Origin: Actinomycetota bacterium | GTDB lineage: Bacteria; Actinomycetota; Thermoleophilia; Solirubrobacterales; Solirubrobacteraceae | Assembly: GCA_005884115.1 (NCBI GenBank) | Contig: VAXW01000006.1 | Location: forward strand, 62,001-126,000 | Length of the DNA: 64,000 nucleotides | Reading direction: 5' to 3' | In this document: in pieces, positions 13,155 to 41,173 of the stretch | Position numbering within the stretch: the stretch's first letter is position 1 | How the letters are laid out: each line of letters begins with the position of its first letter | Made by a program: the position numbers and the translations under genes | Notes under the pieces: model-generated | The model's database searches: none | The model's input: the letters and a program-made list of their open reading frames with translations, nothing else | What the model was told of the DNA's origin: nothing

Positions 13155-13226
13155 GCCCTCGTAGTCCAATGGACAAGACGACCGCCTCCTAAGCGGTAGA
13201 TTCAGGTTCGACTCCTGACGGGGGCA
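13155..13226 (+). tRNA. tRNA-Arg (anticodon CCT)
   Basis: 72-nt cloverleaf. Acceptor GCCCTCG pairs with CGGGGGC (one T-G pair, discriminator A). The anticodon stem ACCGC/GCGGT holds the loop CTCCTAA with anticodon CCT, which reads AGG. T-arm TCAGG/CCTGA with loop TTCGACT. CCA is not encoded. Its 3' half recurs in decayed form at 20.2, 27.1 and 39.7 kb, so this is the likely insertion anchor of the accessory region that follows. Confidence 0.95.
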
Positions 13227-13410
13227 CTAGCACGGACGCCCTGTGACGCTGTAGCGAGGTTGTGGGCTCGACAGGAGGGCCGCGAACGAGCGCTTGGGGG
13301 GACGGCAGGAGATCAGGTGCGGGCGGGCTGCTGCCGTTCACGCGCAAAGCGACACCGCGCATAGCTCGGGCAGCCTTGCATGGCTCACTCGCCGGGCCTA
13401 TCGTTGCGGC

Positions 13411-13926
13411 ATGGCGGTCAGCGATTCGCCTCCTGTCGTGTCGGAGCTGCGTGACTTCGTAGAGCGCTACCTGGCGGCTTGGAACGGCTGCGACGTGGGC
13501 GCGATGGCGAGGTTGATCACCGACGACATCGTCTGGGTGGACCCGGCTCTACCGGAACCGGCGCGCGGCGTCCCGGCGGTGCAGGAGTTCATGCGCGCTA
13601 GCTGTCGCGCCTTCCCGGACCTGCGGTTCGGCGAGCCCGACGCTCCCGCGCTAGCAGTCACGGGCGATGTGGTCCTGTGGGGGTGGTACATGGAGGGCAC
13701 GCACCGCGGCCCGCTCGACCCACCCGGCTTCGCGCCGACGGGTCGCCACATGCGCGTCGACGGGTTCGACCAGTGGACGATGCGCGACGGCCAGATCGCC
13801 CGCTATCGCGCCTTCTATGACATGAACGACGTCGCCCGCCAGCTCGGCATCGTGCCGGCGCCGGGCAGCCGTGCCGAGCGGGGAATGGTGGTACTTCAGC
13901 GCCTGCAGGCCCGGCTCGGGCGCTGA
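13411..13926 (+). CDS. SnoaL-like polyketide cyclase-fold protein
   Basis: 171 residues with the NTF2-like cone fold pattern: LRDFVERYLAAWNGCDV, DDIVWVDPA, VQEFMRASCRAFPDLRF, VVLWGWYMEGTHRG, PTGRHMRVDGFDQW and IARYRAFYDMNDVARQLG. This is the SnoaL/ester-cyclase type, often annotated in stress or degradation contexts; the substrate is unknown. First gene downstream of the tRNA, 184 bp away. ATG start. Confidence 0.82.
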   Translation: MAVSDSPPVVSELRDFVERYLAAWNGCDVGAMARLITDDIVWVDPALPEPARGVPAVQEFMRASCRAFPDLRFGEPDAPALAVTGDVVLWGWYMEGTHRGPLDPPGFAPTGRHMRVDGFDQWTMRDGQIARYRAFYDMNDVARQLGIVPAPGSRAERGMVVLQRLQARLGR

Positions 13927-14150
13927 TGAGGACAGCCGTCAGAGGGTTCTGCTGACCGCGACCGAGGCGCAGGCCACTCGCTCTGCGCTCCGTGCCCCCC
14001 TTGGTCGCCGGCTACTGCCCGAACTCCGCGCCGCTCGTATTTCACCACGAGGCGCGTTCATTTCTGATAGACGGCAAGCGCCCTAAGGAGGCGGGTAGCC
14101 GTGCGCCGTTGTCGTGGCGCGAACAACCTGGTGGTTGAGAATGAGCGACG

Positions 14151-15052
14151 ATGGTTGCTGGTTTGGCCCTGGCGCTGGGCTCGGCGCTCGGCACAAGCAT
14201 CGCGTTCCTGTTAAAGCAGCGCGGCGCGCTGTTGGCGCCGCCGGTGCGTGCGCGTCATCCGCTGCGCAGCGCTGTGGGCCTGTTCCGCTCCCGCTGGTTC
14301 TCGCTGGGCTGGGCGGTCGCGGTTGTCGCCTGGGGGCTTCATGTGGGCGCCCTTGCCCTGGCACCGCTGTCGATCGTGCAGGCGGTGCTCTCGGGCGGGT
14401 TGGTCTTTCTCGCGGTGCTCGCGGAGCGCTACTTCGGCTTTCGGCTGGGACGCCGGCAATGGGCGGCGTGATAATCACCGCTGCAGGGCTCGCGGTGATC
14501 GCGATCACGGGGGGATCACACACCAGCGCGCTACGTCACTACTCGCTCGCGGCGCTGATCGCGGTTGAGTGCCGCGTCTTTGCGCTCGGCGCCGCGCTGA
14601 TCAGGATCTCGATGCGTGGCAGCCTCGGCCCAGCCGCACGGGGTTTGCTGCTCGGAGTGGCCGCCGGTGTGCTGTTCGGAGTGTCCGACATCGCCCTGAA
14701 GTACCTCACCGAGGCCTTGCACGGAGGCGTGCAAGGGATCGTCAGTAAGTGGACATTGGCGGCGCTGGCGGCCTCGGTGCTGGCCTTCTACGCCTCGGCG
14801 CGCGGGCTCCGGCTCGCTCGGGGAGTGGCCGTGATCGCATTCACCTCGGTCGCCGCCAACCTCGCCGCGATCATGGGCGGCATCCTCGTCTTCCGCGACC
14901 CGATCGGGATCGGCGCGCCGGCCGTCGCCGGGCGAGTGATCGCCTTTGGCCTGGTGATCGTCGGTGCGGCACTGATGCCCGCGCCAGTCCGGGCCCGTGG
15001 GGCGCAGGGAGGCTGGCTTGGCTTTGCGCCAGCGCCATCGGCTCGGCGTTGA
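14151..15052 (+). pseudogene. DMT-superfamily permease broken by a 1-nt frameshift
   Basis: The first 106 codons (14151-14471) encode an EamA/DMT-like start with GSALGTSIAFLLKQRGA, then LGWAVAVVAWGLHVGALALAPLSIVQAVL and stop just after RRQWAA. The rest of the family pattern continues in another frame from about 14462 (GVIITAAGLAVIAITGG, LLLGVAAGVLFGVSDIALK, SKWTLAALAAS) to the stop at 15052. One extra G in the tgggcggcg run near 14460 would restore one frame, so either a real 1-nt loss or a sequencing error. The full protein would have about nine membrane segments. Confidence 0.8.
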
Positions 15053-15111
15053 GCCCAATCCTAAGACTGTGTGATTGCCGAGCAGCTACGGCACGAGAAG
15101 GCTTCTGAAAG

Positions 15112-15486
15112 ATGATCGAGCACCAGCAAGACGCCGAGTGGAACGTCGCCGAGTGGCACGGCAAGATGCTGGTCGATCGCGACGGCGAGAAGATAGGCAA
15201 GCTGCAGGATGTGTACGCGGATGTCGAAAACGACGAGCCGCAGTTCGCAACCGTCAAGGAGGGCTTCATCGGCCGCCACCTGACCTTCGTGCCGCTAGGC
15301 GGGATCAAGGTCAGTCCCGATGAGCTGCAGGTAGCCGTCACACGGGAGCAGATCAAGGCGGCGCCCAACATCGAGCAGCATGGTGAGGAGCTCTCCCAGG
15401 CGGATGAGTCGGCCCTCTACCACCACTACGAGCTCAACTACACCCCGCCCAACACAGCGAGCGGGCGTAGACTCGCCCGCCGCTGA
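15112..15486 (+). CDS. PRC-barrel domain protein
   Basis: 124 residues. Barrel signature: WHGKMLVDRDGEKIGKLQDVYAD, ATVKEGFIGRHLTFVPL and VAVTREQIKAAPNI, then an acidic/His-rich tail (LSQADESALYHHYELNY). Such proteins, often paired with DUF2382, are common in actinobacterial stress islands; the role is unproven. ATG start with a weak GAAAG upstream. Intact, unlike the preceding permease. Confidence 0.85.
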   Translation: MIEHQQDAEWNVAEWHGKMLVDRDGEKIGKLQDVYADVENDEPQFATVKEGFIGRHLTFVPLGGIKVSPDELQVAVTREQIKAAPNIEQHGEELSQADESALYHHYELNYTPPNTASGRRLARR

Positions 15487-15653
15487 CGCCCACAGCAACG
15501 CCCGACGGTTGCACCGCAGCGACCCGCGCTGCCCCCACAATTCCGAGTTCATAAGTCGGATTTGCGGTATGCTTGTGGTGCGCCCAGTGAGCCCAGCTCT
15601 TCTCGCTTTCCGGGCGACTGTCGTGGGTCAGAAGGGCAGAGAGGCGGTTGGCC

Positions 15654-16007
15654 ATGGCCACGCCGACAAAGGAGTCTCGCGGTGCTAGCCAACTCGCTCG
15701 CGATGGGCGCGGCGCGTCCGAGTCGGCGTCGCTGGAGTTCTTCGTCTTTGAGGACAACGGCGGTGGCTACCACTGGGCGATCGTGCGTGGTAGTGGCGAG
15801 AGCCTGGCGCAATCGGGGAGCTTCGGGTCTTACGAGGAGGCGGCACAGGTCGGACGCTACGTGCGCGACGGTGCCGAGTCAGCTCGGTTCGAACGCCGCG
15901 CGGCGGAGGATCGTGTGGTTAATGTGCCCGATCGCCGCGAGGCGGCGGTGTGTGACGAGCTTGATGTCGGGCGTTGGTTAGATGAGGGCGGGAGCTTCAG
16001 AAGCTAG
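15654..16007 (+). CDS. DUF1508/YegP-like small protein
   Basis: 117 residues. One YegP-type unit: LEFFVFEDNGGGYHWAIVRGSGESLAQSGSFGSYEEAAQ, preceded by about 25 disordered residues and followed by a charged tail with no recognised domain. The family usually has two units; one is visible here. ATG 15654 is preferred over the in-frame TTG two codons upstream. The 167 bp upstream contain no gene. Confidence 0.75.
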   Translation: MATPTKESRGASQLARDGRGASESASLEFFVFEDNGGGYHWAIVRGSGESLAQSGSFGSYEEAAQVGRYVRDGAESARFERRAAEDRVVNVPDRREAAVCDELDVGRWLDEGGSFRS

Positions 16008-16193
16008 CGGTGTGACACTGGAAGCACCGCGCGCGTCCCTTCTTGGGGGAGTAGTCGGATCGTGTACCGGCTGCGGGCAGAGGCGTGAAGAGAACGCACG
16101 AACGACATCACCGCAGCGAAAGCCTGCCTCTCGAGACAGGTGAACGCACCCACCGCTGCGGGGGCGCTGTTTGGTTGCGTGCGTGGCGCGGCG

Positions 16194-16280
16194 GAAGCCA
16201 GACTTCGCCGGGATGAGGCCTCGCCCATAGAACTTCTTCAGCAGCTCAACCATTCCCTCCTGGATGCCCGTCAGCACACC
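16194..16280 (-). pseudogene. Fragment resembling a DUF2294 domain
   Basis: In the 447-bp gap 16008-16454 a minus-strand segment reads GIQEGMVELLKKFYGRG followed by AKSGF, which resembles the conserved start of DUF2294 proteins (helix then F/YGRGPTKAKS). Here the GPTKAKS part is altered to GLIPAKS, and nothing recognisable follows. It is probably a remnant of a lost gene. No other gene was seen in the gap. Confidence 0.4.
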
Positions 16281-16454
16281 CCGCGCTGGTGCTCGGGACG
16301 GCGTGTGACGGTTCATCGCTGACCTACATGTGCTCGCGAGGCGAGGTCCAGTCGATGGGAGCCGAATGCGCTAGTGTGGCCTTGGTCGCTCGTCGGGTTC
16401 TTAGCCCTTCGCCTTGCGTGCGAACCCGACTGGAGGGCGAGAGAGAAGGTCAGC

Positions 16455-16991
16455 ATGTCGGCTGTCCGCCGTCCGAGGGTTGCGTCGCCTCGCCGCCCAG
16501 CTCCAGTTGCGCTCGATCCAGTTGCGCTCGATTTGCCTCCGCGTGAAGGCTTGGATCGGGGTGGCCACAAAGAGGCGAAGAAAGCGTCCACCGTGCCCAC
16601 CGAGCCAGATCTCGCGATCTCGCTGCGACTTGATGCGCACGCGCCCCGCGCGGCCCGCTGCTACGTGGCCCGTGTCGACCGTCCCTCGCCCGACCTGCGA
16701 GATGCCGTCATGCTGATCACCAACGAGCTCGTCACGCGGGCCCTGCGGCAACGTCACTTCACATCAGGAGAGGACATCGAGCTGCGGGTATGGATGCCCG
16801 CCGACGTCGTGCGAGTGGAGATACAGGGACCTCGGAACCTACTACCCCCGCCAGGCGCACCCGACGAGCCGCACGATGGGCTGCTCATCGAAAAGCTCGC
16901 CGACCGCTGGTCGATGGACACCCACGAGCGCCGCGCGTGCGCGTGGTTTGAGATTGACCGACACAAGCTGAATGTCGTACCGGTGCCCTGA
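16455..16991 (+). CDS. Degenerate HATPase_c/RsbW-like protein (paralogue of 61.5 kb gene)
   Basis: 178 residues. After a roughly 50-residue Pro/Arg-rich start comes an anti-sigma-kinase-like domain: AARCYVARVDRPSPDLRDAVMLITNELVTRALRQ, DIELRVWMPADVVRVEI, and IEKLADRWSMD with ACAWFEID. The usual N-box SELVTNAVRH Asn, which binds Mg-ATP, is Arg95 here, and the GLGL lid glycines are missing, so ATP binding is doubtful. The gene at 61503-61916 has the same changes. ATG 16455 with AGAAGG upstream. An exact 15-bp duplication lies inside the N-terminal part. Confidence 0.65.
   Translation: MSAVRRPRVASPRRPAPVALDPVALDLPPREGLDRGGHKEAKKASTVPTEPDLAISLRLDAHAPRAARCYVARVDRPSPDLRDAVMLITNELVTRALRQRHFTSGEDIELRVWMPADVVRVEIQGPRNLLPPPGAPDEPHDGLLIEKLADRWSMDTHERRACAWFEIDRHKLNVVPVP
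16503..16532 (+). repeat. Exact 15-bp tandem duplication
   Basis: ccagttgcgctcgat occurs twice back to back (16503-16517, 16518-16532) in the N-terminal part of the degenerate HATPase gene, encoding Pro-Val-Ala-Leu-Asp twice. In-frame and recent-looking, since both copies are identical. Confidence 0.9.
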
Positions 16992-17201
16992 GAGTGGTCT
17001 GGCGGAACTCACGCCCGGGCGGGGGTCGGCGCTAGGCACAAGAGCGGTGGCCATGGACCCGCGCACACCTGCCGCCAAAACGACGACCGAAGCCCGGAAG
17101 CCGCCGCAGGCGGCTCTCACGCGGACAGGGAGTGGAGCAGAGGCAAACGGCGTTCCTCCGGTCCAGCACCCTGACTTGATTGGCCGCGCTACAGTCAACT
17201 C

Positions 17202-17426
17202 ATGGCAGCGGAAATAGTCTTCTCCGGCGGTGAGAGAGTTCGGGTGCCATCAAACAACCCCGATGAGGTGATGGCCAGAATGGCCACTGAAGGGTCGCGT
17301 GACCATCAGGCCATGGGCGGCGTTAGGGTCCGCCCCGGGTTCATTGATATTGAGTCTGACCGGGGCATCATTTACATCCGTCCGGATCAGGTTGCCTACG
17401 TTTGCGAGGCGCCGGGGCCGTCCTAG
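17202..17426 (+). CDS. Small hypothetical protein, 74 residues
   Basis: Not recognised. Predicted beta-rich: IVFSGGERVRV, a central segment DEVMARMATEG, then GFIDIESDRGIIYIRPDQVAYVCEAP. The pattern of a short beta sheet ending in NPDQV/PDQV-like residues is seen in small stand-alone actinobacterial proteins. ATG start. The codon use is less GC-biased than neighbours (for example attgatattgag), fitting an acquired gene. Confidence 0.5.
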   Translation: MAAEIVFSGGERVRVPSNNPDEVMARMATEGSRDHQAMGGVRVRPGFIDIESDRGIIYIRPDQVAYVCEAPGPS

Positions 17427-17697
17427 CCGTCCTCACGCACGATACGCTGAGGTGGCTCTCTGATACCGCTGCCGCTCCGGTCACCGGGCGACTGCATCCG
17501 CGGGATTACGCCGACCTGCTGCAAACTTCTCCGGCACGTCCTTGTCCGACCACTTCTCGGCGAGCTTGGCCTCCGCGATGCGATGAATCGCCACGACCGT
17601 CATCTTCATGTCGTTGCCGGTTCGAGGAATGCCAGGCAGTCACGCTGGCCCGCGTGCGATGTCCAGCATGGTCCGGCGCTGGTCATATCGTTCGCTT

Positions 17698-18669
17698 GTG
17701 GCGCGCACCCGGCTGTACCGCGAGGGAAAGCTCGTGCTCGAGGATTTTCCAGTGGACGACATCTCCGAGCACCTCAAGGACGAGGGTGCATGCGTATGGT
17801 TGGACTATTGCGACCCAACCGCGGCGGAGCTCGCGACGATCGTCGCGGAGTTTCAGCTGCACCCGTTGGCAGTCGAGGATGCGATCAGCGAGCGTCAGCG
17901 CCCGAAGCTCGACCGGTACGACTCGCATCTGTTCCTGAGTGCCTATGCCGTGAAGCTGGATACCGAGTCTGGCGAGCTACGCACGCACGAGATCGGAGCT
18001 TTCATAACGACGCATGCGCTCGTCACTGTCCGCAAGGACGAGGACGTGCCGATCGACTCGGTAGTCGCTCGCTGGGACGAGTCAATCGAACTCGCCACGT
18101 ACGGCGTGTCGTTCCTACTCTGGGGCCTACTGGACGACCTCGTCGACGGGCATTTCGAAGCGGTGCAGTCACTCGACAGTGAGATCGAATCGCTGGAGGA
18201 CCTTCTATTCGATGACGCGCCGCGCAACACCGAGGTTCAGCGTCGGTCGTTCGAGTTTCGCAAGAGCCTAGTCCTACTTCGACGCGTGGTGCTCCCGATG
18301 CGCGAGGTCGTCAACTCGCTGATGCGCCGCGACTTGCACGTTCTCGATGAGGGAATGGCCCCCTACTACCAAGACGTGTATGACCACGTGTTGCGTGCGA
18401 CGGAGTGGACGGAGTCGCTGCGCGACCTCGTGAGCACGATTCTCGAGACGAACCTCACGATCCAAGGCAACCGGATGAACCTCGTGATGAAGAAGGTCAC
18501 GAGCTGGGCGGCGATCATTGCCGTCCCGACGGCAATTACCGGCTTCTACGGGCAGAACATTCCCTTCCCCGGTTTCGCGGCTCATTGGGGGTTCTGGTTT
18601 TCGACGGCACTCATCGTCGTGCTGTCAGGTGGTCTGTACCGGTCCTTCCGACGTCGCGACTGGCTCTAG
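17698..18669 (+). CDS. CorA-family metal transporter with GQN instead of GMN
   Basis: 323 residues. Typical CorA layout: cytoplasmic alpha/beta funnel (VWLDYCDPTAAELATI, HPLAVEDAISERQRPKLDRYD), long helix with VLLRRVVLPMREVVNSLM, TM1 ending in YGQNIPF, TM2 and a basic end FRRRDWL. The signature GMN, which forms the pore entrance for Mg2+ in CorA, reads GQN. Either selectivity is changed or the gene is drifting. GTG 17698 was chosen from the domain start; ATG at 17662 is possible. Compare the canonical copy at 56.3 kb. Confidence 0.85.
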   Translation: MARTRLYREGKLVLEDFPVDDISEHLKDEGACVWLDYCDPTAAELATIVAEFQLHPLAVEDAISERQRPKLDRYDSHLFLSAYAVKLDTESGELRTHEIGAFITTHALVTVRKDEDVPIDSVVARWDESIELATYGVSFLLWGLLDDLVDGHFEAVQSLDSEIESLEDLLFDDAPRNTEVQRRSFEFRKSLVLLRRVVLPMREVVNSLMRRDLHVLDEGMAPYYQDVYDHVLRATEWTESLRDLVSTILETNLTIQGNRMNLVMKKVTSWAAIIAVPTAITGFYGQNIPFPGFAAHWGFWFSTALIVVLSGGLYRSFRRRDWL

Positions 18670-18690
18670 CAGGCAGACAACGCTCAGGGA

Positions 18691-18750
18691 CGTGAGCCTC
18701 TCAAGCCGCGCGCCTGACAACGCCTCGGTCAGGTTGCCAAGAGGCTCACG
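18691..18750. other. Long two-tier stem-loop after corA
   Basis: An 11-bp perfect inverted repeat, CGTGAGCCTCT (18691-18701) with AGAGGCTCACG (18740-18750), encloses a second one, CCTGAC (18713-18718) with GTCAGG (18728-18733). It starts 21 bp after the corA stop. No T-run follows on either strand, so a simple intrinsic terminator is not obvious; a structured RNA or a remnant of a mobile end are alternatives. Confidence 0.6.
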
Positions 18751-19151
18751 CTTGACAACTGACCGGGCGAGGTCGATGGACTGCGATGGGATCGCACGCA
18801 TGGCCGATCTCGTTAACGGATACGACCCTAACCGTGGGACGGTGAGAAGGCCACCTGCGTGTCCGCGCTCGGTTTGGTGAGTAGGTGGGCATGTTGATCG
18901 CGGCCCTTAGCCTAGGCATCGGCAGGGAACCTGGAGCTGCTTGAAATGGGAGCGCTGATCGCTAGGGGCAGCCAACTTGGCGTCGAACTGGAACTCGAAG
19001 CCTGCAACCGGCCTCACATCTACAAAAACAGGGAACCTGGCCCCGAAGAGGCCGCGGGACGAGCGAACGTACCCGGCGCGGCGCTCGAGGTGAGGCCAGG
19101 AAACGCCTTGACGGACCACCCCGGTTCCAGGCGTCCCGATACGCTGGATCC
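18751..19151. other. Non-coding or decayed stretch between corA and the SDR
   Basis: Together with the stem-loop this makes a 482-bp gap. Open frames exist, as expected at this GC, but none shows family-like sequence or a ribosome binding site. The last roughly 100 bp are open in the SDR frame without a start codon. I see no RNA gene. Confidence 0.4.
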
Positions 19152-20045
19152 ATCGAGGGTTTCGACCGCCGCATCTCGGGTGAGCGTGTCGTCGTCACCG
19201 GCGCCACGAGCGGTATCGGACGCGCAATCGCCCGCGACCTTGCTCGACGCGGCGCCCGCTTGACCCTGCTCGCGCGGGATGAGGCGAGGGCGGCGGCGAT
19301 CGCGGCGGAGCTCGCGGCCGTGCCGGGTTCGGCGGGAACACCTGACCTCGTAAGCTGCGATCTGGCCGACCTGGGCTCCGTGCGCCACGCTGCTCGCGAG
19401 CTGCACGGCCGCTACGACGCGATCGACGTGCTCATCAACAACGCCGGCATGCGGTCGTTTTCCCCCGGCACGACCGTCGACGGCTTCGAGCTGATGATGG
19501 GGACCAACCACCTCGGGCCGTTCCTCCTCACCAACCTGCTGCTCGACTCGCTGACCGCGTCGCAACGCGCCCGCGTCGTGACCACCGCATCGGAGGCGCA
19601 TCGTCTGGGTGGCCGCGTCGATCTCGCCCATCTGGCCGAGCCCGTTTTCTCTGGCCCGGCCGGAGCCGAGCGGCGCTACGGCCAGTCGAAGCTGATGAAC
19701 ATCCTCTTCACCCAGGAACTCGCCCTACGCCTCGCCGAGACCACGGTCACCGCCAACTGCTTTTGCCCGGGCGCTGTGGCAACCGGGCTGGTCCGCGAGA
19801 CGCGAGCACTCGACCTTAGTGCGCGGCTGCTGTCGCGAACGCCGCTGCTGCGCACACCGCAGCAGGGCGCGCGCATGGGCGTTCGCCTGGTCGTCGACCC
19901 GTCGCTGGCAGAGACAACCGGGCGGTTCTTCACCTCGACGCCTGGGCTCGGCCGCCTCGGCCCGGTCTCCGCGCGCACCGACCGGGCATACCAGCGCGAA
20001 GCGTGGGAGCGCTCGTCGGCGCTCGTCGGTCTCGGACACGTGTGA
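19152..20045 (+). CDS. Short-chain dehydrogenase/reductase without a canonical start
   Basis: NAD(P)-dependent oxidoreductase of the SDR family (retinol-dehydrogenase-like). Rossmann loop TGATSGIGRAIA, then CDLADLGSV, INNAG, TNHLGPFLLT, the catalytic Ser in VTTASEAH and Y-x-x-x-K in RRYGQSKLMN, and FCPGAVATGL. The cofactor loop lies upstream of the first possible start in this frame (TTG 19260), so that start would give a protein without its NAD site. The coordinate used is an ATC codon preceding EGFDRRISGERVVVTGA; the real start may be lost. About 297 residues. Confidence 0.7.
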   Translation: MEGFDRRISGERVVVTGATSGIGRAIARDLARRGARLTLLARDEARAAAIAAELAAVPGSAGTPDLVSCDLADLGSVRHAARELHGRYDAIDVLINNAGMRSFSPGTTVDGFELMMGTNHLGPFLLTNLLLDSLTASQRARVVTTASEAHRLGGRVDLAHLAEPVFSGPAGAERRYGQSKLMNILFTQELALRLAETTVTANCFCPGAVATGLVRETRALDLSARLLSRTPLLRTPQQGARMGVRLVVDPSLAETTGRFFTSTPGLGRLGPVSARTDRAYQREAWERSSALVGLGHV

Positions 20046-20195
20046 GCTCCAGGTCGGGAGGTCAGGTCGCTGGCCTGACGGGCAGCAAGCTGCGTCTGCT
20101 GCCCAAACCCAGCCCGATCGCGCCTAATCCCGCCTCATCGCCGATCTCGGCGAATGATCCAAATCGCCTGCAGCGGCCGAAGGATCCGGCTCTTC
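20046..20195. other. Intergenic stretch upstream of pseudo-tRNA copy 1
   Basis: No gene seen. The end (about 20162-20190, atcgcctgcagcggcc then gatccggctc) is similar to 39655-39684 before pseudo-tRNA copy 3, so the repeated unit is longer than the tRNA itself. The gap as a whole (20046-20464, 419 bp) holds only this repeat, the pseudo-tRNA and the protease leader. Confidence 0.45.
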
Positions 20196-20239
20196 GCCAG
20201 CGAGTCGAGCCGGCCTCCTAAGCGGTCCTGGCGGGGGCA
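20196..20239 (+). pseudogene. Decayed tRNA-Arg copy 1
   Basis: Reads GCCAGCGAGTC, then gcctcctaagcggt (14 nt identical to the anticodon arm of the tRNA at 13155) joined directly to cctggcgggggca, the 3' acceptor strand with one change. The 16-nt T-arm segment and most of the D-arm are missing. The preceding 30 bp (20162-20190) also resemble the stretch before copy 3 at 39.7 kb. Confidence 0.75.
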
Positions 20240-20399
20240 TCAGCCCCGAAACGCCCGCAAATCATCTAGTTCTAACTCACACAACGGGGCAGGCCGGCCG
20301 CCTGGTCTCTGCCGCCGCCCCGGGCAGCGGAGCGCGAGCTCCTGGCCGAGCTCCCCGCGACGCTCGCCGATGCCGCGAAGTCGTCATAATCTGTAGGTC

Positions 20400-20454
20400 G
20401 CGTCACGGGTGGCGAGACGCGCCGGTTTGCCACCCGGATTGAGAGCCAAACCGG
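20400..20454 (+). promoter_or_regulatory. Predicted H-type pseudoknot leader of the subtilisin gene
   Basis: Two 8-bp helices cross each other: CGGGTGGC (20406-20413) with GCCACCCG (20429-20436), and CCGGTTTG (20422-20429) with CAAACCGG (20447-20454). They share one base, so 7-8 bp each can form together as a pseudoknot, or they compete. A third option is GCGTC/GACGC (20400-20404, 20416-20420). The second helix abuts the ribosome binding site GGAGGGGG (20453-20460) before ATG 20465. A -10-like CATAAT at 20385-20390 would start the transcript just upstream. Confidence 0.5.
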
Positions 20455-20464
20455 AGGGGGCGCC

Positions 20465-23122: not shown

Positions 23123-23515
23123 AGCCACCAGCTTCACGGTCAACTCCGAAAGCTCGATCACCGCCACCTCCCCCGCCGGCAAAGGCAGCGTCGACGTGAC
23201 CGTGACCACCCCAGGCGGCACCAGCGCGACGAGCTCCGCCGACCAGTTCAGCTACGCACCGGCGCCGAGCGTGACGGGCGTTTCTCCCAGCGAAGGCCCA
23301 GAAGCCGGCGGCACCTCGGTGACGATCACGGGCACGAACCTGGGCAAAGCCTCGGCGGTCAGGTTCGGCTCGACGGCCGCCAAAGGCTTCAAAGTCAACT
23401 CGGGCACCTCGATCACCGCCGAATCCCCCGCCGGCAAAGGCAGCGTCGACGTGACCGTGACCACCCCGGGCGGCACCAGCGCGACGAGCTCCGCCGACCA
23501 CTTCAGCTATCTGCC
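22785..23515 (+). repeat. IPT/TIG-encoding near-identical DNA repeats
   Basis: Three direct repeats begin with cagcgaaggcccagaagcc at 22801, 23033 and 23288. The first two are almost identical for about 180 bp. The spacing is 232 bp then 255 bp; the 23-bp difference is a missing accaccccaggcggcaccag-type segment in unit 1 at about 22972. Two more divergent IPT/TIG units follow (about 23520-23765, 23770-24050). Confidence 0.9.
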
Positions 23516-24053: not shown

Positions 24054-24287
24054 TCGCACCGCCGACGGGGGGTCCACACCATCCTCCAGCGACAGCGTGC
24101 CCAGGCCACCACATGCGGACGGTTCGCAGGCGCGACCTTCTAGAGTGCCTTATCGAGCCAGTGGGAGATTCTGAAACATCGCGCTTGATCTGGTCGACTC
24201 GCGAACCTTCCCGAAGGTGGTAGCGATCCAGGTCTACCGGCCCGCCGGGCGCCCCCAGTACGCAACGGCCACGGCCAACCTAATGCA

Positions 24288-25370: not shown

Positions 25371-25464
25371 CTCAGTACCCGAGGCGATCGAGGAGGTCCG
25401 TCCTGCCCTTCTCGAGGTCGGCGTGCGAGACGCGATCGGAGCGCTGCCCGACGCAGACTCGGGC

Positions 25465-26910: not shown

Positions 26911-27082
26911 GCGCGTCGAGTCTACGCCGCCGCGACGGGCTGGGTGGGCTCCTCAGCGCGGGGCGCGTTTGCGCAGCAAGCCACTCTGCTGGCCAAACGC
27001 AGCCGAAAGCCCTCAACTCGCGACGAATCGAAGGCAGTCCCGGCCGCCCAGATCGCGCCCAGGCACCGCGAACTGGGCGAGT

Positions 27083-27142: not shown

Positions 27143-27203
27143 TTCTCGCCTGCTCGTCGTTGTGAGCGCGACACGGATAATCTCGACGCCGCGAGGCACA
27201 CAT

Positions 27204-28250: not shown

Positions 28251-28367
28251 TCGCGCCGCGCATCGTCGGTGCTCGTCCGCACACGTGCCTGCGCCAAAAA
28301 GGCGACCGTTCGCCGTGGACCTCGCCGTCGTGCGAGGGCGCGTTCTGTGCGGCCTGCCCGCCGGGCT

Positions 28368-29606: not shown

Positions 29607-29759
29607 CACAGAACACGTTACAGGCTCGACCGACGGCTGGCAAGCGGCGTCCCGTGCGAGGGCTGTCGAGTCCAAGACGCTCCTCCCGCTGAGCGGTCCA
29701 ACAAGCGCGAGCATGCTCTATCGTTCGCCGGGCCACAGACCCGGGAGGGGACGAGGGCA

Positions 29760-32561: not shown

Positions 32562-32720
32562 GCGCTCGCTGCGCGAGAGCGTCCGCTTACGATCCTGCCG
32601 ACGCCGCCGCACTACCAAGGCGCATGAGCGATTCCCACGATCGCCGAGATTGGGCATATCCGAGGTTGCCGTTGCGGGGTAAAGGGTAATTAAAGGGCGC
32701 CCACACCGTTCGGAGCGAAG

Positions 32721-32752
32721 GTTGCATGCCGCTGTAAGCATGAGTTGCATGC
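32721..32752. repeat. Direct repeat gttgcatgc upstream of the peptide-binding gene
   Basis: gttgcatgc occurs at 32721 and 32744, 23 bp apart, each containing the palindrome GCATGC. They lie about 85-110 bp upstream of the binding-protein start, a position suited to a regulator site. No further support. Confidence 0.35.
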
Positions 32753-32833
32753 GGTCGTGACCAAACTCTCGGAGCTGGCGAGGACACCGTAATGCGGGAT
32801 GCTCGCAACAACAGGAGGAGGAGGAAGTCGGCG

Positions 32834-34480
32834 ATGAGAAAGCTTCGCTTGGTTGGCACCCTGGGCAGCATCCTTGTGCTCGCTCTGTCCGTGAGCGCCT
32901 GCGGGAAAAGCACGAAGGTCGGGGGGACGGTGACGGTGCTCTTCGGCACGGCACCCGACTCCCTGGACCCGGGCATGGCGTACACGACGCAGGCCCTGGA
33001 GCCGGACCAGACCGCCTACATTCCCATGACCACCTATGCGCACGTGGCCGGCGTCGAAGGCGGCAAACTGATCCCGGGCCTGGCGACGGCCCTGCCTACG
33101 ATCTCGGCGGACGGCAAGACCTACACGATGACCATGCGCCCGGGTCTGGTCTTCTCCAACGGCCGGCCGGTCAAGGCGAGCAATTTCACGTACGGCATCG
33201 AGCGCGCGCTGAAGATCCCCTGGGGCGGATCGTCGTTCATCACGGCCAACATCGTGGGAGCGGAAGCCTACGCCAGCGGCAAGGCGAAAACGATCTCGGG
33301 CATCACCGCCAACGATGCGACCGGGCAGATCACGATCAAGCTGATCGCGCCCTACGGCGCGTTCGACAACGTGCTCGCGTTCCCGTCCTTCGCGCCGGTC
33401 CCCAAAGGCACCCCGTTCAAAAACGAACCCACCAACCCGCCGCCGGGAGTGGGCCCGTACAAGATCACCAGGATCGTCCCCAATGTCTCCTACCAGGTGG
33501 TCAGAAACCCATACTGGGCCAAAGAGGCGATCCCGGGTATCCCGTCCGGATCGGTGGACCGGGTCATCGCCAAGATCTCCTCCAACACGACCGCCAACGC
33601 GCTGTCGGTGCTCGGAAATTCGGCCGACGTGTTCGACTTCGCCGACACGATCCCGCCCAGCATCCTCTCGCAGGTGCCGAGCAGGGCGTCGGGCCGCTAC
33701 GAAAAGGTGATCAAAAACTCCACCTACTACTTCTTCCTGAACACGAAAACGAAGCCGTTCTCGAGCGAACTCGCGCGCCAAGCGGTGATCGTGGGGCTCG
33801 ACCGCAACGCGATCGCGCGCCTCGGCTCGGGCTTCTTCACCCCGGCCTGCTACCTGCTCCCGCCGGGGATCGTGGGCCACCCCACGTCGCCATGTCCGTA
33901 CGGCGACCCGACCAAGCCCGACCTCGCCAAGGCCAAGGCGCTGGTCAAACAGTCCGGCATGGCGGGAACGCCCGTGACGGTGTGGGGCGAGATGCGCTCG
34001 CCGCGCAGGCAGTTCGTTGACTACTACACGAGCTTCCTCAACCAAATCGGGTTCAAGGCGACCGAGAAGATCATCGCCGACGCGACGTACTTCCCGACGA
34101 TCGGCAACCTGAAGCTCAACCCCCAGACGGGCTTCGCCGACTGGAACGAAGACTTCCCCAACCCGATCGACTTCTACGGCATCCTGATCGCCGGCGACGC
34201 GATCCTGCCAACCAACAACCAGAATTTCAGTCAGGTCAACGATCCGGTGATCAACGCCAAGGTCAACATGCTCGGCAGCCTCTACAAGGTGCCGACGAGC
34301 AGCCTGAAGTCGGTCGAATCACAGTGGCAGGCGCTCGACGAATACAACGCCAAGAAGGCCTACACGGCCGTCTATGGCTACGCGTCGTTCCCCAAGCTCA
34401 CCTCGAACCGCCTCGACTTCAACGCCGCGACGCTGCATACGGTCTTTGGCTGGGACTGGCTGACGTTCAAGCTGAAGTAG
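32834..34480 (+). CDS. Peptide ABC transporter substrate-binding lipoprotein
   Basis: 548 residues, SBP_bac_5 family. Lipobox LSVSAC with Cys at about 23, then GGTVTVLFGTAPDSLDPG, SADGKTYTMTMRPGLVFSNGRPVKASNFTYGIERAL and VRNPYWAKEAIPG. It captures oligopeptides (or nickel/other ligands in some members) outside the membrane for the permease encoded downstream. The ATG is preceded by a very strong purine stretch, aggaggaggaggaag. A GC-rich hairpin separates it from the permease genes. Confidence 0.92.
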   Translation: MRKLRLVGTLGSILVLALSVSACGKSTKVGGTVTVLFGTAPDSLDPGMAYTTQALEPDQTAYIPMTTYAHVAGVEGGKLIPGLATALPTISADGKTYTMTMRPGLVFSNGRPVKASNFTYGIERALKIPWGGSSFITANIVGAEAYASGKAKTISGITANDATGQITIKLIAPYGAFDNVLAFPSFAPVPKGTPFKNEPTNPPPGVGPYKITRIVPNVSYQVVRNPYWAKEAIPGIPSGSVDRVIAKISSNTTANALSVLGNSADVFDFADTIPPSILSQVPSRASGRYEKVIKNSTYYFFLNTKTKPFSSELARQAVIVGLDRNAIARLGSGFFTPACYLLPPGIVGHPTSPCPYGDPTKPDLAKAKALVKQSGMAGTPVTVWGEMRSPRRQFVDYYTSFLNQIGFKATEKIIADATYFPTIGNLKLNPQTGFADWNEDFPNPIDFYGILIAGDAILPTNNQNFSQVNDPVINAKVNMLGSLYKVPTSSLKSVESQWQALDEYNAKKAYTAVYGYASFPKLTSNRLDFNAATLHTVFGWDWLTFKLK

Positions 34481-34504
34481 GAACGCAGGGAAGAGCATGA
34501 GACC

Positions 34505-34533
34505 GGAGGGGCGCGCGAGTGTCGCGCCCCTCC
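34505..34533 (+). terminator. GC-rich hairpin between binding protein and permease genes
   Basis: 11-bp perfect stem GGAGGGGCGCG (34505-34515) with CGCGCCCCTCC (34523-34533), 7-nt loop, no T-run. Lies 25 bp after the binding-protein stop and 29 bp before the permease ATG. It likely protects or partly terminates the upstream message, giving more binding protein than permease. Confidence 0.65.
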
Positions 34534-34561
34534 CGAAGCCTGGACGTAGGCTGGAGTCGAT

Positions 34562-35614
34562 ATGGCCATCGATAGCGGCACGAAGGCGACCGGCACCGAG
34601 TTCTCCAGCGAAATCCCTGTAGAGCTCCTGGGCGAGTCGGGCAAGCTCGCCGCGGGGGCGGGCCCGTATCGGCTGGCCTGGCGGCGGCTCCGGCGCAACC
34701 GCGCGGCGCTGGCGTTCGGCGGGCTGTTTTTGCTGATCCTCCTGCTGTGCCTGCTGGCGCCGGTGTATGCGCACGACATCGCGCACACCGGGCCCGACGA
34801 CAACCACATAACGGAAACGGTCAAGGTGGGGGGCAAGGTCAGGGACGTCGTCAACGCGATCGGACTGCCGATCGGTCCGACGTGGCACTCGCGCTTCTTC
34901 CTGGGCGCGGACTCGAACGGTCGCGACGTCGCCGTGCGGCTGCTCTATGGGGGTCGCAACTCGCTCGAGGTGGGGACCGTGGCGACGCTGATCACGATGG
35001 TGCTCGCCACGATCATCGGCGTGCTGGCGGGCTACTCGCGCGGTCTGGTCGATGGCCTGCTGACGCGGGCCCTCGACGTGATCTGGGCATACCCGGTGGT
35101 GATCCTCGGCGTGGCGCTCGGCGCCATACTCGCCGTGAGCGGCATCGACCTAGGGATCGTGAAAGTGAGGGGGAGCTCGCTAATGGTGCCCGCGGTCGTG
35201 ATCGGCATTGTCTACGTGCCATACGTCGCCAAGCCGATCCGCGGCCAGGTGCTGGGGCTGCGCGAGCGCGAGTTCATCGACGCCGCGCGCGTCCAGGGCC
35301 AGAGCAGCCTGCGCATCATGTTCAGCGAGCTGCTGCCAAACGTCGGCTCGACGGTGATCGTGTTCGTGCCGCTGATGCTCGCCAACGCGGTCCTGCTCGA
35401 GGCCGGGCTGTCCTACCTCGGCGCCGGCGTACAGCCGCCCAACCCCTCGTGGGGCACGATGATCTCTGACGGGATCAGCTCCATCCCGGCGGCCATCCAC
35501 CTCGTGCTGGTACCGGGAATCATGCTCGTGCTGGCGGTCCTGAGCATCAACGTGTTTGGAGATGGCGTGCGTGACGCGCTCGACCCGCGGGCGAAGATCC
35601 GCATCGGCCGCTGA
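34562..35614 (+). CDS. dppC: Peptide ABC transporter permease, DppC/OppC type
   Basis: 350 residues. OppC N-terminal segment (LAWRRLRRNRAALAFGGLFLLI), a periplasmic loop with GADSNGRDV, then the inner-membrane domain with the EAA loop REFIDAARVQGQSSLRIMFSELLPN and the end GDGVRDALDPR. Six membrane segments expected. Its stop overlaps the next gene's start by one base (TGATG). C-type before B-type is the reverse of the usual order. Confidence 0.9.
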   Translation: MAIDSGTKATGTEFSSEIPVELLGESGKLAAGAGPYRLAWRRLRRNRAALAFGGLFLLILLLCLLAPVYAHDIAHTGPDDNHITETVKVGGKVRDVVNAIGLPIGPTWHSRFFLGADSNGRDVAVRLLYGGRNSLEVGTVATLITMVLATIIGVLAGYSRGLVDGLLTRALDVIWAYPVVILGVALGAILAVSGIDLGIVKVRGSSLMVPAVVIGIVYVPYVAKPIRGQVLGLREREFIDAARVQGQSSLRIMFSELLPNVGSTVIVFVPLMLANAVLLEAGLSYLGAGVQPPNPSWGTMISDGISSIPAAIHLVLVPGIMLVLAVLSINVFGDGVRDALDPRAKIRIGR

Positions 35615-36563
35615 TGCGCCGCTTCGTCGTGCGCCGGCTCGCAGCCGCCGTTGGCGTGCTGTTTGTCATCTCGGTTCTGACCTTCCTCATCTTCCAGACG
35701 ATCCCCAACGGCGACCCCGCGCTGCGCATCGGCGGACGGCTGGCCACTGCCCAGGAGATCGCGCAGATACGCCACGAGTGGGGCTTCGACAGGCCGATCT
35801 ACGTCCAGTACTTCAGGACCATGGAGAAGATCTTCAACGGCACGGTCGTCTCCTACACCCAGGGCGTCAACGTGCTCGATCAGATCCGCCACGGCCTGCC
35901 GGCGACGCTGTCGCTGGCCGTGGGAGCCGGCTTCATCTGGCTCATGCTCGGGATCCTCTTCGGCGTGATCACCGCGATCAAGGCGGGCCGCTTCGCCGAT
36001 CGCGCGCTAACCGTCTTGGCTTTCATCGGCGTGTCCAGCCCGCCCTTCTTCCTCGGGGCACTGGTGATCTACTACCTCGGCTATAAGGCGGGGGTAGTTC
36101 CGCTGGGCGGTTACGTGCCGCTGGGCCAAGACCCGGCGCAATGGTTCTCGCACCTGATCGCCCCCTGGCTGGTGCTGTCTGTGCTCTTTATCGGCATCTA
36201 CTCCCGCGTCTTGCGCTCGACGCTGCTCGACACGCTCGGGGAGGACTACGTGCGCACCGCGCGTGCGAAGGGAATCTCCGAGCGCCGCGTGCTGGCCCGG
36301 CACGTGCTGCGCAACTCCCTGATCCCGATCATCTCCCTGTGGGGACTGGACTTCGCGCAGATAATCGGCGGCGGCGCGATCCTCACGGAGTCGGTCTTTA
36401 GCCTGCACGGGGTGGGCCAGTTCGCGGCAGAATCGATCGGCCGGCTCGACCTGCCGCCGATCCTCGTGGTGACGATGCTGACCGCCTTCGCTGTGGTCTT
36501 GCTCAGCGCTGTAGTGGACATCCTCTATGCGGTGCTCGACCCGCGCATCCGTCTCAGCGGCTG

Positions 36564-36564
<1 letters not shown>
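35614..36564 (+). CDS. dppB: Peptide ABC transporter permease, DppB/OppB type
   Basis: 316 residues. Family start RRFVVRRLAAAVGVLFVISVLTFLIF, GFDRPIYVQY, EAA loop EDYVRTARAKGISERRVLARHVLRNSL, and the end VVDILYAVLDPRIRLSG. Forms the channel with the C-type permease upstream. Overlaps the next gene by one base. Confidence 0.92.
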
Positions 36565-37603
<1,039 letters not shown>

Positions 37604-37607
<4 letters not shown>

Positions 37608-38788
37608 GCACGGCGGATCGGCACAGCCGAGCCCGCGATGCCTCCTTGGCCGGCGACGCGGTCGCGGTTCGCCCCCCTCCCGACGCCCAGCCGCGCCCGC
37701 TGCTGGAGGCGGAGCATCTGGTGGTCTACTTCCCGGTCAAGGCCGGGCTGTTGATCAACCGCACGGTCGCCGAAGTGCACGCCGTGGACGACGTTTCCTT
37801 CCAGCTGATGGAGGGTGAGACGGTGGGCATCGTGGGCGAGTCCGGCTGCGGCAAGACGACACTCGCTCGCGCACTGATCCGTCTGCTGGAGCCGACTGCA
37901 GGAACGATCCGCTTCCGGGGGCGCGACATCAGCCACGCCAACCGACGCGAGTTGCGGCCGGTACGTCGGCAGATGCAGATGGTCTTTCAGGATCCGCAGG
38001 GTTCGCTGAACCCACGCAAGCGAGCGATTCAGATCGTGGGCGCTCCGATGCGCATGCAGGGCACGCCGCGCAACGAGATCGAGCGCCAGGTACGCGAGCT
38101 GCTGGAGCGTGTCGGGCTCAACCCGGAGCACGTCAACCGCTTCCCGCACGAGTTCTCCGGCGGCCAGCGTCAGCGCATCGGGGTGGCGCGTGCGCTGGCG
38201 GTGGAGCCAACGCTGATCCTTCTCGACGAGCCGGTCTCGGCGCTGGATGTTTCGATCCAGGCGCAGGTCATCAACCTGCTCGACGACCTCCAGGACGGCT
38301 TCGGTCTCAGCTATGTGTTCGTCGCTCACGACCTCTCGGTCGTGCGCCACGTATCCGACCGCATCGCGGTCATGTACCTCGGCAAGCTGGTTGAGATATC
38401 GCCCGGGGAGGAGCTCTACATCAAGCCGATCCACCCCTACACGCAGGCGCTCCTGGCAGCGATCCCGATCCCCGACCCGAAGGAGAACCGGGCGCGCCAG
38501 CGACCGGTCGTCAAGGGCGAGCCGCCGAACCCGATCTCGCCGCCGTCCGCATGCCGGTTTCATCCACGCTGCCCCTATGCCACGGAGATCTGCCGGACCG
38601 TCGAGCCACCCCTGAGCGAATATGCGAACGGACACCTCGCGGCGTGTCACCATCCGCTCAACCTCACGGCCGGGCAGATCGCCGCAGCGCGGCGCTCAGC
38701 TCTCAGCCCGCGCACCGCCGGCGATGAGCTGCCGGTCGCCAGCAGGGCGCCTTCAGGTGGAGCGGACGCCAGCGGCGCGTCGAACTGA
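37604..38788 (+). CDS. dppF: Peptide ABC transporter ATPase, DppF/OppF type
   Basis: 394 residues. After about 35 variable residues: Walker A GESGCGKTTLAR, FQDPQGSLNPRKRA, signature FSGGQRQRIGVARAL, Walker B LILLDEPVSALDV and AHDLSVVRHVSDRI. C-terminal CRFHPRCPYATEIC cluster. Start is TTG 37604, overlapping the dppD stop by four bases (TTGA), which implies translational coupling. The roughly 60-residue tail is Ala/Ser-rich. Confidence 0.93.
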
Positions 38789-38931
38789 CGAGCGCGCGCT
38801 TCCGAGGGGGCTTCGCAGGCCTGGCCGCGCCGGTGCGGGATCGATCAGTTCAATACTTTCCGCAGCTGAATTCCGCGCTGAAGGCCGACGGCCGGCCCGC
38901 ACTCCCGCTGAAGTACGGTGTTTCTGTCGCT

Positions 38932-39597
38932 ATGACACCGGATCACCTCGACTCCTTGCTGGCTGAGCAGGTCGCCTATTACCGAGCTCGAGCCCATGAG
39001 TACGACGCGACCCACGCATTCGAGGCGGCGTCGCGTGCGAAGCTCCTCGCTGCGCTGCGAGCGTTCTCTCCGCGAGGCCGAGTCCTCGAGCTCGCGTGCG
39101 GCACTGGCCAGTGGACCGCCGAGCTTGCCATGCACGCATCGCTGCTCACCGCGGTCGACGCCTCGCCGGAGATGATCGCGCTCAACCGCGCGCGCGTCCC
39201 GTCGGACAATGTCCATTATGTGGAGGCAGACCTCTTCGCGTGGTCGGCGGCGGAGCGCTACGACGTCGTGTTCTTCTCCACGTGGCTTTCGCATGTGCCG
39301 CCACAACGCTTCGAGGGCTTCTGGGCGCTCGTAGGTGAATGTCTGAAGGAGAATGGTCGGGTGTTCTTCATCGACGAGCTCCCGGCGGTTGCCGCCCACG
39401 AGCGTTGGATCGCTGGCGCTATCGCTCCCCTGGTTGAGCGCCCGCTGACCACGGGCGAGCGCTATCGAGCCATCAAGGTGCTCTACGACCCAGCCGAGCT
39501 TGGCGCTCGACTGTCCGAACTCGGCTGGCTGGCCGACATCCGGACGGTCAGCTGGCGCTTGTTCTACGCCACCGTCGAGCGGGCACCGACCGGGTAG
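38932..39597 (+). CDS. Class I SAM-dependent methyltransferase
   Basis: 221 residues. AYYRARAHEYDATHAFE, SAM motif I VLELACGTGQWTAELA, motif II LTAVDASPEMIALNRAR, DLFAWSAAERYDVVFFSTWLSHVP, then FFIDELP. Generic small-molecule methyltransferase of the UbiE/Methyltransf_25 group; substrate unknown. ATG 38932 fits the domain start better than the GTG 99 bp upstream. Follows the transporter operon by 143 bp, with pseudo-tRNA copy 3 downstream. Confidence 0.82.
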   Translation: MTPDHLDSLLAEQVAYYRARAHEYDATHAFEAASRAKLLAALRAFSPRGRVLELACGTGQWTAELAMHASLLTAVDASPEMIALNRARVPSDNVHYVEADLFAWSAAERYDVVFFSTWLSHVPPQRFEGFWALVGECLKENGRVFFIDELPAVAAHERWIAGAIAPLVERPLTTGERYRAIKVLYDPAELGARLSELGWLADIRTVSWRLFYATVERAPTG

Positions 39598-39688
39598 CCG
39601 GCAAGCGGCGCAAGGCCGTGCCCGGCCTGATTCATAACCCGCGAGAGCGACCACATCACCTGCAACGGCCCCGAGATCCGGCTTCCTG

Positions 39689-39748
39689 GCCCGGCCGCCG
39701 GGCCCCGCCTCCTCGGCGCTAAATCCAGGTTCGACCCCTGCCGGGGCA
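39689..39748 (+). pseudogene. Decayed tRNA-Arg copy 3
   Basis: 39706-39748 aligns with the 3' half of the tRNA at 13155: cgcctcctcggcgctaaatc then caggttcgacccctgccggg and gca. The T-arm is intact (CCAGG/CCTGC-like with TTCGACC), but the anticodon stem is broken (cgcct/cggcg) and the 5' acceptor and D-arm cannot be folded. The 30 bp before it resemble the stretch before copy 1. The 269-bp gap 39598-39866 holds nothing else. Confidence 0.7.
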
Positions 39749-41144: not shown

Positions 41145-41173
41145 CAGGCCAGGCTGCCGAGCCGACGCTCAAC

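What the first reader, a model, noticed from the sequence alone, without database searches (positions are those of the whole stretch)
13155..39748. Intact tRNA-Arg followed by three decayed copies of itself at ~7-13 kb steps
The anticodon arm through the 3' end of tRNA-Arg(CCT) at 13155 recurs at 20196-20239 (14 nt identical plus the acceptor strand, T-arm deleted), 27083-27142 (about 8 changes in 45 nt) and 39689-39748 (T-arm intact). All are on the same strand, all lack a usable D-arm, and copies 1 and 3 share about 30 bp of upstream sequence too. This is what repeated site-specific insertions at a tRNA 3' end would leave (one displaced end per insertion). Island anchoring at tRNA genes is well known; three nested relics without any integrase is less usual. 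An alternative is a tRNA-derived repeat family.
Basis: partly seen in the sequence, partly recalled or inferred. Interest (0 to 1): 0.75.

Follow-up and report, generated by a model that had tools for sequence, protein, structure and literature searches.

The report
Serial insertion scars downstream of tRNA-Arg
Three decayed half-copies of an arginine tRNA gene mark the far ends of at least three mobile DNA elements that inserted one after another at the same tRNA gene in an uncultured actinobacterium, and relatives show that such elements share fixed end sequences, split several different tRNA genes at the anticodon and sometimes carry a single defence-like gene without a recognisable integrase.

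Summary
tRNA-Arg(CCT) is intact at 13155-13227; three displaced 3' halves, each beginning at the anticodon arm, follow on the same strand at 20213, 27096 and 39705. Upstream of each lies what remains of a conserved ~100-bp element end: 75.7, 19.1 and 9.9 bits with a model trained on copy 1 but not on copies 2 and 3; the third is not significant alone. Decay grows with distance from the tRNA, as serial insertion next to the tRNA predicts. In the five relatives where both flanks were seen, this tRNA lies 0.2 to 15 kb from the galT-side core gene; in the window about 50 kb. In the same genus and order the end motif precedes, by 112-134 nt, anticodon-loop halves of eight tRNA species, 3' halves in some and 5' halves in others. 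Left ends carry paired CTGCC repeats at about 85 nt. Some elements encode a tyrosine integrase; others of 1.5-3.6 kb show none and carry one Fic, DUF4143 or DUF4160/DUF2442 module. Tandem relics at tRNA/tmRNA genes are known; integrase-less cassettes sharing end motifs across several tRNAs look like a new variant. That they move in trans is inferred.

The parts
13155..13227 (+). Intact tRNA-Arg(CCT), the regenerated target gene
   Evidence: ARAGORN; Rfam RF00005 62.8 bits; syntenic with relatives' tRNA-Arg(CCT)
13228..13340 (+). Possible decayed left end of the newest element: terminator-like stretch and one arm-like CTGCTGCC at about 13328
   Evidence: 17 nt past the tRNA still match L023; single arm-like repeat only, repeat pair not found; weak, inferred
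13228..20094 (.). Segment 1 cargo: SnoaL-like, PRC-barrel, CorA, short-chain dehydrogenase genes
   Evidence: gene prediction; Pfam; no integrase match
20095..20191 (+). Right end 1 of an element (arm motif CTGCTGCCCAAACCC at 20096, second motif at about 20166)
   Evidence: model R1 75.7 bits (training member); homologous to ends in L019 and L023; positions
20213..20239 (+). Displaced 3' half 1: tRNA nt 30-43 plus 60-72, 16 nt of the T arm missing
20240..26979 (.). Segment 2 cargo: S8 peptidase with TIG domain, TIG protein, PLP-dependent decarboxylase
   Evidence: Pfam; 25452-26977 is 94% identical to L026
26985..27077 (+). Right end 2, decayed
   Evidence: model R1 19.1 bits, E 8.3e-5, not in training; also found in genome search
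27096..27142 (+). Displaced 3' half 2 (tRNA nt 26-73)
   Evidence: score 48
27143..39621 (.). Segment 3 cargo: O-methyltransferase, penicillin amidase, opp-type ABC transporter genes, methyltransferase
   Evidence: Pfam; two blocks 86-87% identical to L026, one inverted
39622..39683 (+). Right end 3, strongly decayed (second motif at about 39658 recognisable)
   Evidence: model R1 9.9 bits, E 0.063, not significant alone; 79% over 33 nt to copy 1
39705..39748 (+). Displaced 3' half 3 (from tRNA nt 28, T arm kept)
   Evidence: score 49
39749..63079 (.). Further DNA before the conserved galT-side flank; no tRNA relic recognised
   Evidence: flank orthologues of 63080-64000 lie just after the tRNA in L027; one search finds no further half at score 34 or more

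Best explanation
The region downstream of tRNA-Arg(CCT) is an integration hotspot. Tyrosine-integrase elements recombine at the anticodon loop of the tRNA gene. Each carries a replacement 3' half that regenerates the gene, so the old 3' half is pushed to the element's far end next to the element's own right end. The next element inserts again at the regenerated gene and pushes the previous one away, leaving one right end plus one displaced half per insertion. At least three insertions occurred here, the newest next to the tRNA; integrase genes and most left ends have since been lost and the right ends have mutated. Shown: the halves, the element ends, their fixed spacing, empty and occupied sites, and integrases beside tRNAs in relatives. 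Inferred: the enzymatic mechanism, the order of events, and that each half marks a whole former element rather than a later rearrangement.
For: Halves and ends in the window. End score falls with distance from the tRNA: 75.7, 19.1, 9.9 bits at 7.0, 13.9 and 26.5 kb. Ten places outside tRNA-Arg(CCT) were found by homology to the first ~50 nt of the L023 end; 8 of the 10 turned out to precede halves of Val, Ala or Ile tRNAs. Model R1 gives 36 hits in 11 of 24 genomes of the genus, own genome included. Of the 30 fetched genus hits a tRNA half follows in 13 of 14 training and 6 of 16 non-training ones; of 9 fetched hits elsewhere in the order, in 4, plus one intact tRNA; scores 61-90 (halves) against at most 32 in 37 upstream controls. 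Relatives with fresher copies: L019 three halves at 1.5-kb steps, L021, L022, L023, L036. L023 has tRNA, left-arm repeats, tyrosine integrase, right end and half within 10.7 kb. Left-arm repeat pairs lie 52-90 nt outside 13 of 147 tRNAs or halves scanned on both sides (about 1 expected at 0.4% per flank), four of them just after displaced halves (L021, L051, L134 twice), as accretion requires. Near-empty site: about 0.2 kb in L027 against 49.9 kb in the window. L026 homology ends at right end 2.
Against: No integrase match and no left-arm repeat pair remain in the window's variable region (the pair was looked for only within 170 nt of the tRNA and of copies 2 and 3); no Phage_integrase match lies on the window's contig C4. 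Right end 3 is not significant alone. The distal 23 kb (39.7-63 kb) carries no recognisable relic. One near-empty site was seen; other relatives have different contents rather than single-segment absences. Three scores decreasing in order happen once in six by chance. Of the 16 non-training genus hits 10 have no recognisable half, and 4 of 9 in the order have none above 44 (L093 scores 36); most of these are the weaker model hits, but G000:C5:384960 (57 bits), G022:C44:12458 (55 bits) and G000:C6:68545 (45 bits) are not.
Confidence: 0.93

Rival explanations
1. One large island was acquired already composite: the three segments and relics were assembled in another host and arrived together in a single integration (CIME-type accretion transfer).
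For: Composite transfer of tandem elements is described (PMC5704250, passages). G011 shares blocks from segments 2 and 3 near its own tRNA-Arg.
Against: In G011 the blocks differ in order and orientation and no extra half was found there. Ends show graded decay with distance. Neither excludes this rival.
Confidence: 0.25
2. The halves are tRNA gene duplications or a tRNA-derived repeat family scattered by homologous recombination.
For: 7 of 26 partial tRNAs in the scanned part of G000 lie on a contig other than their best-matching gene, and 2 of the 19 others lie on the opposite strand.
Against: Breaks fall at the anticodon loop across many tRNA species: 20 of 21 3' halves start -11 to +3 nt from the anticodon. 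A common non-tRNA end motif sits at near-fixed spacing. 17 of 19 same-contig partial tRNAs lie on the strand of their parent gene.
Confidence: 0.04
3. The copies are functional RNA features (attenuators or terminators) kept by selection rather than scars.
For: All three precede a predicted + strand gene.
Against: Copy 1 lacks 16 nt of the T arm and copies 2 and 3 carry changes in the stems (by inspection; no folding was run). Rfam at gathering level finds only the intact tRNA.
Confidence: 0.03

Closest known systems
Dehalococcoides ssrA genomic islands (PMC3146451, passages seen)
   Same: Tandem islands within 100 kb of one tmRNA gene, bounded by a repeat of its 3' end; a conserved 15-bp motif just upstream of the repeats; 15 islands without an integration module, possibly cis-mobilizable
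   Different: Serine recombinases, one target gene, T-loop insertion, 20-bp repeat. Here tyrosine integrases, several tRNA targets, anticodon-loop halves of about 44 nt, end motif of about 100 bp shared between targets
CIMEs and tandem accretion of ICEs/IMEs (review PMC5704250, passages seen)
   Same: Insertion, decay with loss of integrase, then a new insertion into the end that carries the target gene
   Different: Transfer genes were not searched for here; small integrase-less elements at different tRNAs share end motifs and carry one defence-like module
Islander tRNA islands (PMC4383910, passages seen)
   Same: Regenerated tRNA plus displaced fragment; anticodon-centred sites are common (2083 of 3919 islands), 5' fragments rare (159 of 3919)
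   Different: Islander tests for an integrase and calls tandems only when each member has its own; it lists 4 tandems of three or more, so integrase-less relic arrays fall outside it
Additive flexible island with recurring tRNA-Lys ends in Methylophilaceae, and the separate tycheposon there (PMC10872708, passages seen)
   Same: Additive island marked by repeats of the last 20 bp of a tRNA gene; the tycheposon starts at a tRNA and holds a tyrosine recombinase
   Different: Different phylum, tRNA and repeat length; no relation tested

Membership tests
tRNA-integrating tyrosine-integrase elements (Islander class, anticodon site) | Regenerated tRNA gene and displaced fragment in correct orientation | tested here: met
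   window; relatives; own genome 17 of 19 same-contig partial tRNAs on the parent's strand
tRNA-integrating tyrosine-integrase elements (Islander class, anticodon site) | Fragment boundary at the anticodon loop | tested here: met
   Of 26 partial tRNAs in the scanned part of G000: 20 of 21 3' halves start -11 to +3 nt from the anticodon, three 5' halves end 8-9 nt past its first base, 2 fit neither class
tRNA-integrating tyrosine-integrase elements (Islander class, anticodon site) | Integrase gene inside the element | tested here: not met
   None matched in the window's variable region or on contig C4; present in relatives' L023 and L040. The window holds relics: it works like such elements but is not a complete member
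CIME (cis-mobilizable element) | Lost integration and transfer genes, both att ends kept | tested here: inconclusive
   L048 and L021 keep both ends without an integrase match; transfer genes not searched; window segments keep recognisable right ends only
CIME (cis-mobilizable element) | Mobilised in cis with a neighbouring element | not testable with these tools
   needs excision assays
Lambda-type attP with arm sites | Repeated arm-type sites flanking the core on both sides | tested here: inconclusive
   Sequence pattern present: right CTGCTGCCCAAACCC, left paired CTGCC repeats. Integrase binding not tested
Mobile integron | attC sites and IntI-type integrase | not tested
   the sites here are tRNA halves with arm-like motifs, unlike attC as recalled; IntI was not searched for

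The most novel reading that the evidence does not exclude
In this Solirubrobacterales genus one end-sequence family serves an integron-like traffic built on tRNA genes: a few elements encode the tyrosine integrase, while many 1.5-3.6-kb cassettes with the same arm sites but no integrase carry one defence or metabolic module, are integrated in trans at the anticodon loops of many tRNA genes, displacing either half, and pile up into arrays with the newest next to the tRNA.
Probability: 0.3. Interest if true: 0.75.

Novelty: new variant of a known kind. Interest (0 to 1): 0.52.

Why it matters
Integrase-less relic arrays escape island finders that demand an integrase, so tRNA-anchored gene flow may be underestimated. 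About a quarter of this genome was scanned, mostly around tRNA genes, and it holds 26 partial tRNAs of 15 tRNA species. If the small defence cassettes move in trans with a shared integrase, they are a simple vehicle for single-gene defence systems between tRNA sites, and the conserved end motif makes them searchable. The graded decay could give a relative clock for successive insertions.

Tried and rejected
Searching the own genome with the intact tRNA alone finds only itself and five short matches of 15-23 nt at E 0.28-0.96; too insensitive for halves. A further relic at window 48032 (R1 12.4 bits, E 0.0098) was rejected: it lies inside a predicted gene (47464-48930) and no half follows. G000:C5:399959 is followed by a decayed Ala half (score 54, other scoring; 99th percentile of 200 random stretches 39), while C5:384960, C5:387160, C6:68545 and the two C2 ends have none recognisable and are counted as ends only.

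The pattern scan of genome contigs (25 stretches) is a specificity control only: 7 of the 8 Solirubrobacteraceae/Solirubrobacterales matches have a half downstream (scores 76-90), but those 7 are loci from which the pattern was written; 0 of the 16 scored matches in other taxa have one (23 or less). L161 and the single viral contigs match L162 were not scored because the script stopped at L161. One search, a first count of halves, took each locus's best motif, so two overlapping loci scored one place twice; one search repeats it at the exact hit places and its numbers are used. The blastn inside one search printed no rows; the boundary rests and the letters printed.

Class-wide R1 search: 5 of 299 genomes at E 1e-4; order-wide 17 of 201 at E 1e-3; both use stricter filters, so these are lower bounds. 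No homologue of the L023 integrase at E 1e-20 in G000, nor in G006 or G023, which hold the integrase-less Fic elements; these genomes are 58-88% complete. G000 has 16 Phage_integrase matches at E 0.001, none on C4, the window's contig. Zhao and Williams 2002 and Williams 2002 could not be read and are known only from reference lists. For print on Solirubrobacterales or Thermoleophilia, one search listed 12 of 1,222 papers, none of which holds 'solirubrobacter'; one search listed 2 of 2, of which PMC9903846 was seen in passages, without such arrays.
Full report
What is there. The window carries one recognised tRNA gene, tRNA-Arg(CCT) at 13155-13227. Three partial copies follow on the same strand. 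Copies 2 and 3 align over tRNA nt 26-69 and 28-69 with scores 48 and 49, where unrelated window hits reach 22-26 and the other 42 tRNA genes recovered from this genome at most 32. Copy 1 is nt 30-43 plus 60-72, a 3' half lacking 16 nt of the T arm. Each begins in the anticodon arm.

An element end sits upstream. The ~130 bp before copy 1 is homologous to the sequence before tRNA-Arg halves in relatives L019 and L023. Fourteen such ends, next to halves of Arg(CCT), Val(CAC), Ala(TGC) and Ile(GAT), were aligned. They share a motif with CTGCTGCCCAAACCC and about 10-bp-spaced repeats, and a weaker second motif some 70 nt further. A sequence-only model, R1, finds in the window copy 1 (75.7 bits, training member), copy 2 (19.1 bits, E 8.3e-5, not in training) and, weakly, copy 3 (9.9 bits, E 0.063; matches at 48032 and 51142 score higher and are taken as chance).

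Relatives at the same site. Same-genus loci carry tRNA-Arg(CCT) with syntenic upstream genes (window 5169-13012). The downstream core flank (window 63080-64000, called galT side by its look; recalled, not tested by Pfam) was seen with the tRNA in five same-genus loci: about 0.2 kb away in L027, 2 kb in L025, 3 kb in L037, 5.5 kb in L033 and 15 kb in L023, against 49.9 kb in the window (distances read). In the other same-genus loci one of the two was not seen. Extra halves stand in L019 (three at 1.5-kb steps), L021 (two), L022 (two), L023 (one), L036 (one) and, short, L020. L023 shows a whole element within 10.7 kb: tRNA, left-arm repeats, a 447-aa tyrosine integrase, right end and displaced half. 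Three blocks of window segments 2 and 3 are 86-94% identical to DNA beside G011's tRNA-Arg (L026), one of them inverted; the six core blocks upstream are 70-87% identical, and two short further matches are weaker. The block ending at window 26977 loses homology within about 10 nt of right end 2.

The same end at other tRNAs. Homology to the first ~50 nt of the L023 end found ten places away from tRNA-Arg(CCT) in the genus; eight precede halves of Val, Ala or Ile tRNAs, two (L043, L044) do not. R1 then gives 36 hits in 11 of 24 genomes of the genus (14 hits are its training sequences) and hits in 17 of 201 genomes of the order at E 1e-3. Thirty of the 36 and nine order loci were fetched; a half follows in 13 of 14 training, 6 of 16 non-training genus and 4 of 9 order loci, plus one intact tRNA in the order (L096). 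Halves start 112-134 nt from the motif start and score 61-90; 37 upstream controls reach at most 32. By best match: Arg(CCT), Arg(CCG), Ala(TGC), Ala(CGC), Ile(GAT), Gly(GCC) as 3' halves; Val(CAC), Ala(TGC), Arg(TCT) as 5' halves. So one end motif accompanies displacement of either half, and tRNA-Ala(TGC) is met both ways. As a specificity control, 0 of 16 scored pattern matches in unrelated taxa have a half. That family belongs to class Thermoleophilia.

Left ends. A pair of CTGCC repeats, starts 9-13 nt apart, stands 52-90 nt (11 of 13 at 82-90) outside 13 of 147 full or partial tRNAs scanned on both sides; some loci overlap, so 147 counts a few twice. Random 170-nt stretches have it at 0.4% (15 of 4000). 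Four of the 13 follow displaced halves (L021, L051, L134 twice): the next element's left end begins right after the previous half, which is what tandem insertion predicts. In the window one arm-like repeat remains near 13328.

Own genome. Stretches totalling 771 kb, mostly within 10 kb of tRNA genes, hold 26 partial tRNAs of 15 species besides 44 full matches (copy 1 of the window falls below its threshold). Of 21 classed as 3' halves 20 start -11 to +3 nt from the anticodon (Glu at +15 does not); three are 5' halves; two fit neither. Of 19 on their best-matching gene's contig 17 are on its strand; 7 are on other contigs. Ala(TGC) has six, Trp two, Val two (5' type). Three Pro(GGG) halves and an Arg(ACG) fragment lie on contigs without their parent, two Pro and the Arg inside the Ala(TGC) island. 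The scan is biased to tRNA neighbourhoods, and no other genus was scanned in this way, so whether this density is exceptional is open.

Cargo. Elements without a tblastn match (E 0.01) to six integrases: L048 at tRNA-Val (3.6 kb) and L021 at tRNA-Arg (3.2 kb), both with left and right ends and with Fic proteins 43% identical to each other (PADLOC SoFic); L019 with a DUF4143 ATPase (PADLOC PDC-S01) and a DUF4160/DUF2442 pair, and L041 at tRNA-Ile with a pair 75-77% identical to it plus a dGTPase-like gene, these with right ends and halves but no left-arm pair. The third L019 half has no R1 end before it. The same pair at two tRNAs suggests cargo moving between sites. L134 has a 1.5-kb element with an integrase remnant (76-aa frame, 24.4 bits, below Pfam's cut-off; 85% identical over 139 aa to the L040 integrase), plausibly a decay intermediate. 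The window's segments carry metabolic and transport genes instead, from the 20 genes given to Pfam.

Interpretation. Serial anticodon-loop integration with accretion is the best explanation (0.93). That integrase-less cassettes move in trans is inferred and has evidence against it: the genomes holding the Fic elements show no homologue of the L023 integrase at E 1e-20, though they are incomplete.

Known or new. Tandem islands with and without integration modules at one tmRNA gene are described in Dehalococcoides (PMC3146451, passages), and the decay-accretion cycle in an IME review (PMC5704250, passages). Islander counts 2083 of 3919 islands at the anticodon, 159 with 5' fragments and 4 tandems of three or more, with an integrase test (PMC4383910, passages). 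The likeness of the anticodon stem-loop to a lambda-type core is reviewed in PMC8371274 (passages). The window by itself is a new member of a known kind; the shared-end family with integrase-less defence cassettes at several tRNAs, displacing either half, makes it a new variant.

Noticed in passing
L164 5309-5352, 16634-16690, 19240-19286 (G000:C5, minus strand): 3' halves of tRNA-Pro(GGG) (two) and a larger 3' fragment of tRNA-Arg(ACG) lie inside the tRNA-Ala(TGC) island although their best-matching genes are on other contigs; how they got there is unexplained.
   Followed up: partly
L046 4550-8061 (G000:C10): tRNA-Val(CAC) is followed on its 5' side by two displaced 5' halves, 1.9 and 1.5 kb apart; in this 5' type the element would have to supply the tRNA's promoter, and a -10-like AATAGAAT (tRNA sense) stands just upstream (by inspection).
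   Followed up: partly
L136 7980-8021 and 9854-9896 (G022:C45): A tRNA-Ala(TGC) half and a tRNA-Phe half lie 1.8 kb apart on the same strand, a second mixed array; the 477-aa predicted protein between them has no Pfam or PADLOC match at E 0.001.
   Followed up: partly
L031 8885-8957 (G024, another genus of the family): The tRNA-Arg(CCT) gene is inverted relative to both flanks compared with the window.
   Followed up: no
window 22799-23688: Tandem copies at 232-255-nt spacing (four of 139 nt, 71-84% to the reference; three of 224 nt) within the TIG-domain protein genes, whose predicted frames overlap at 23064-23122.
   Followed up: no
L084 around 1600 (G000:C6:68545): A right-end motif faces a second arm-like CTGCTGCCCAAA stretch head to head, without a recognisable tRNA half.
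   Followed up: no
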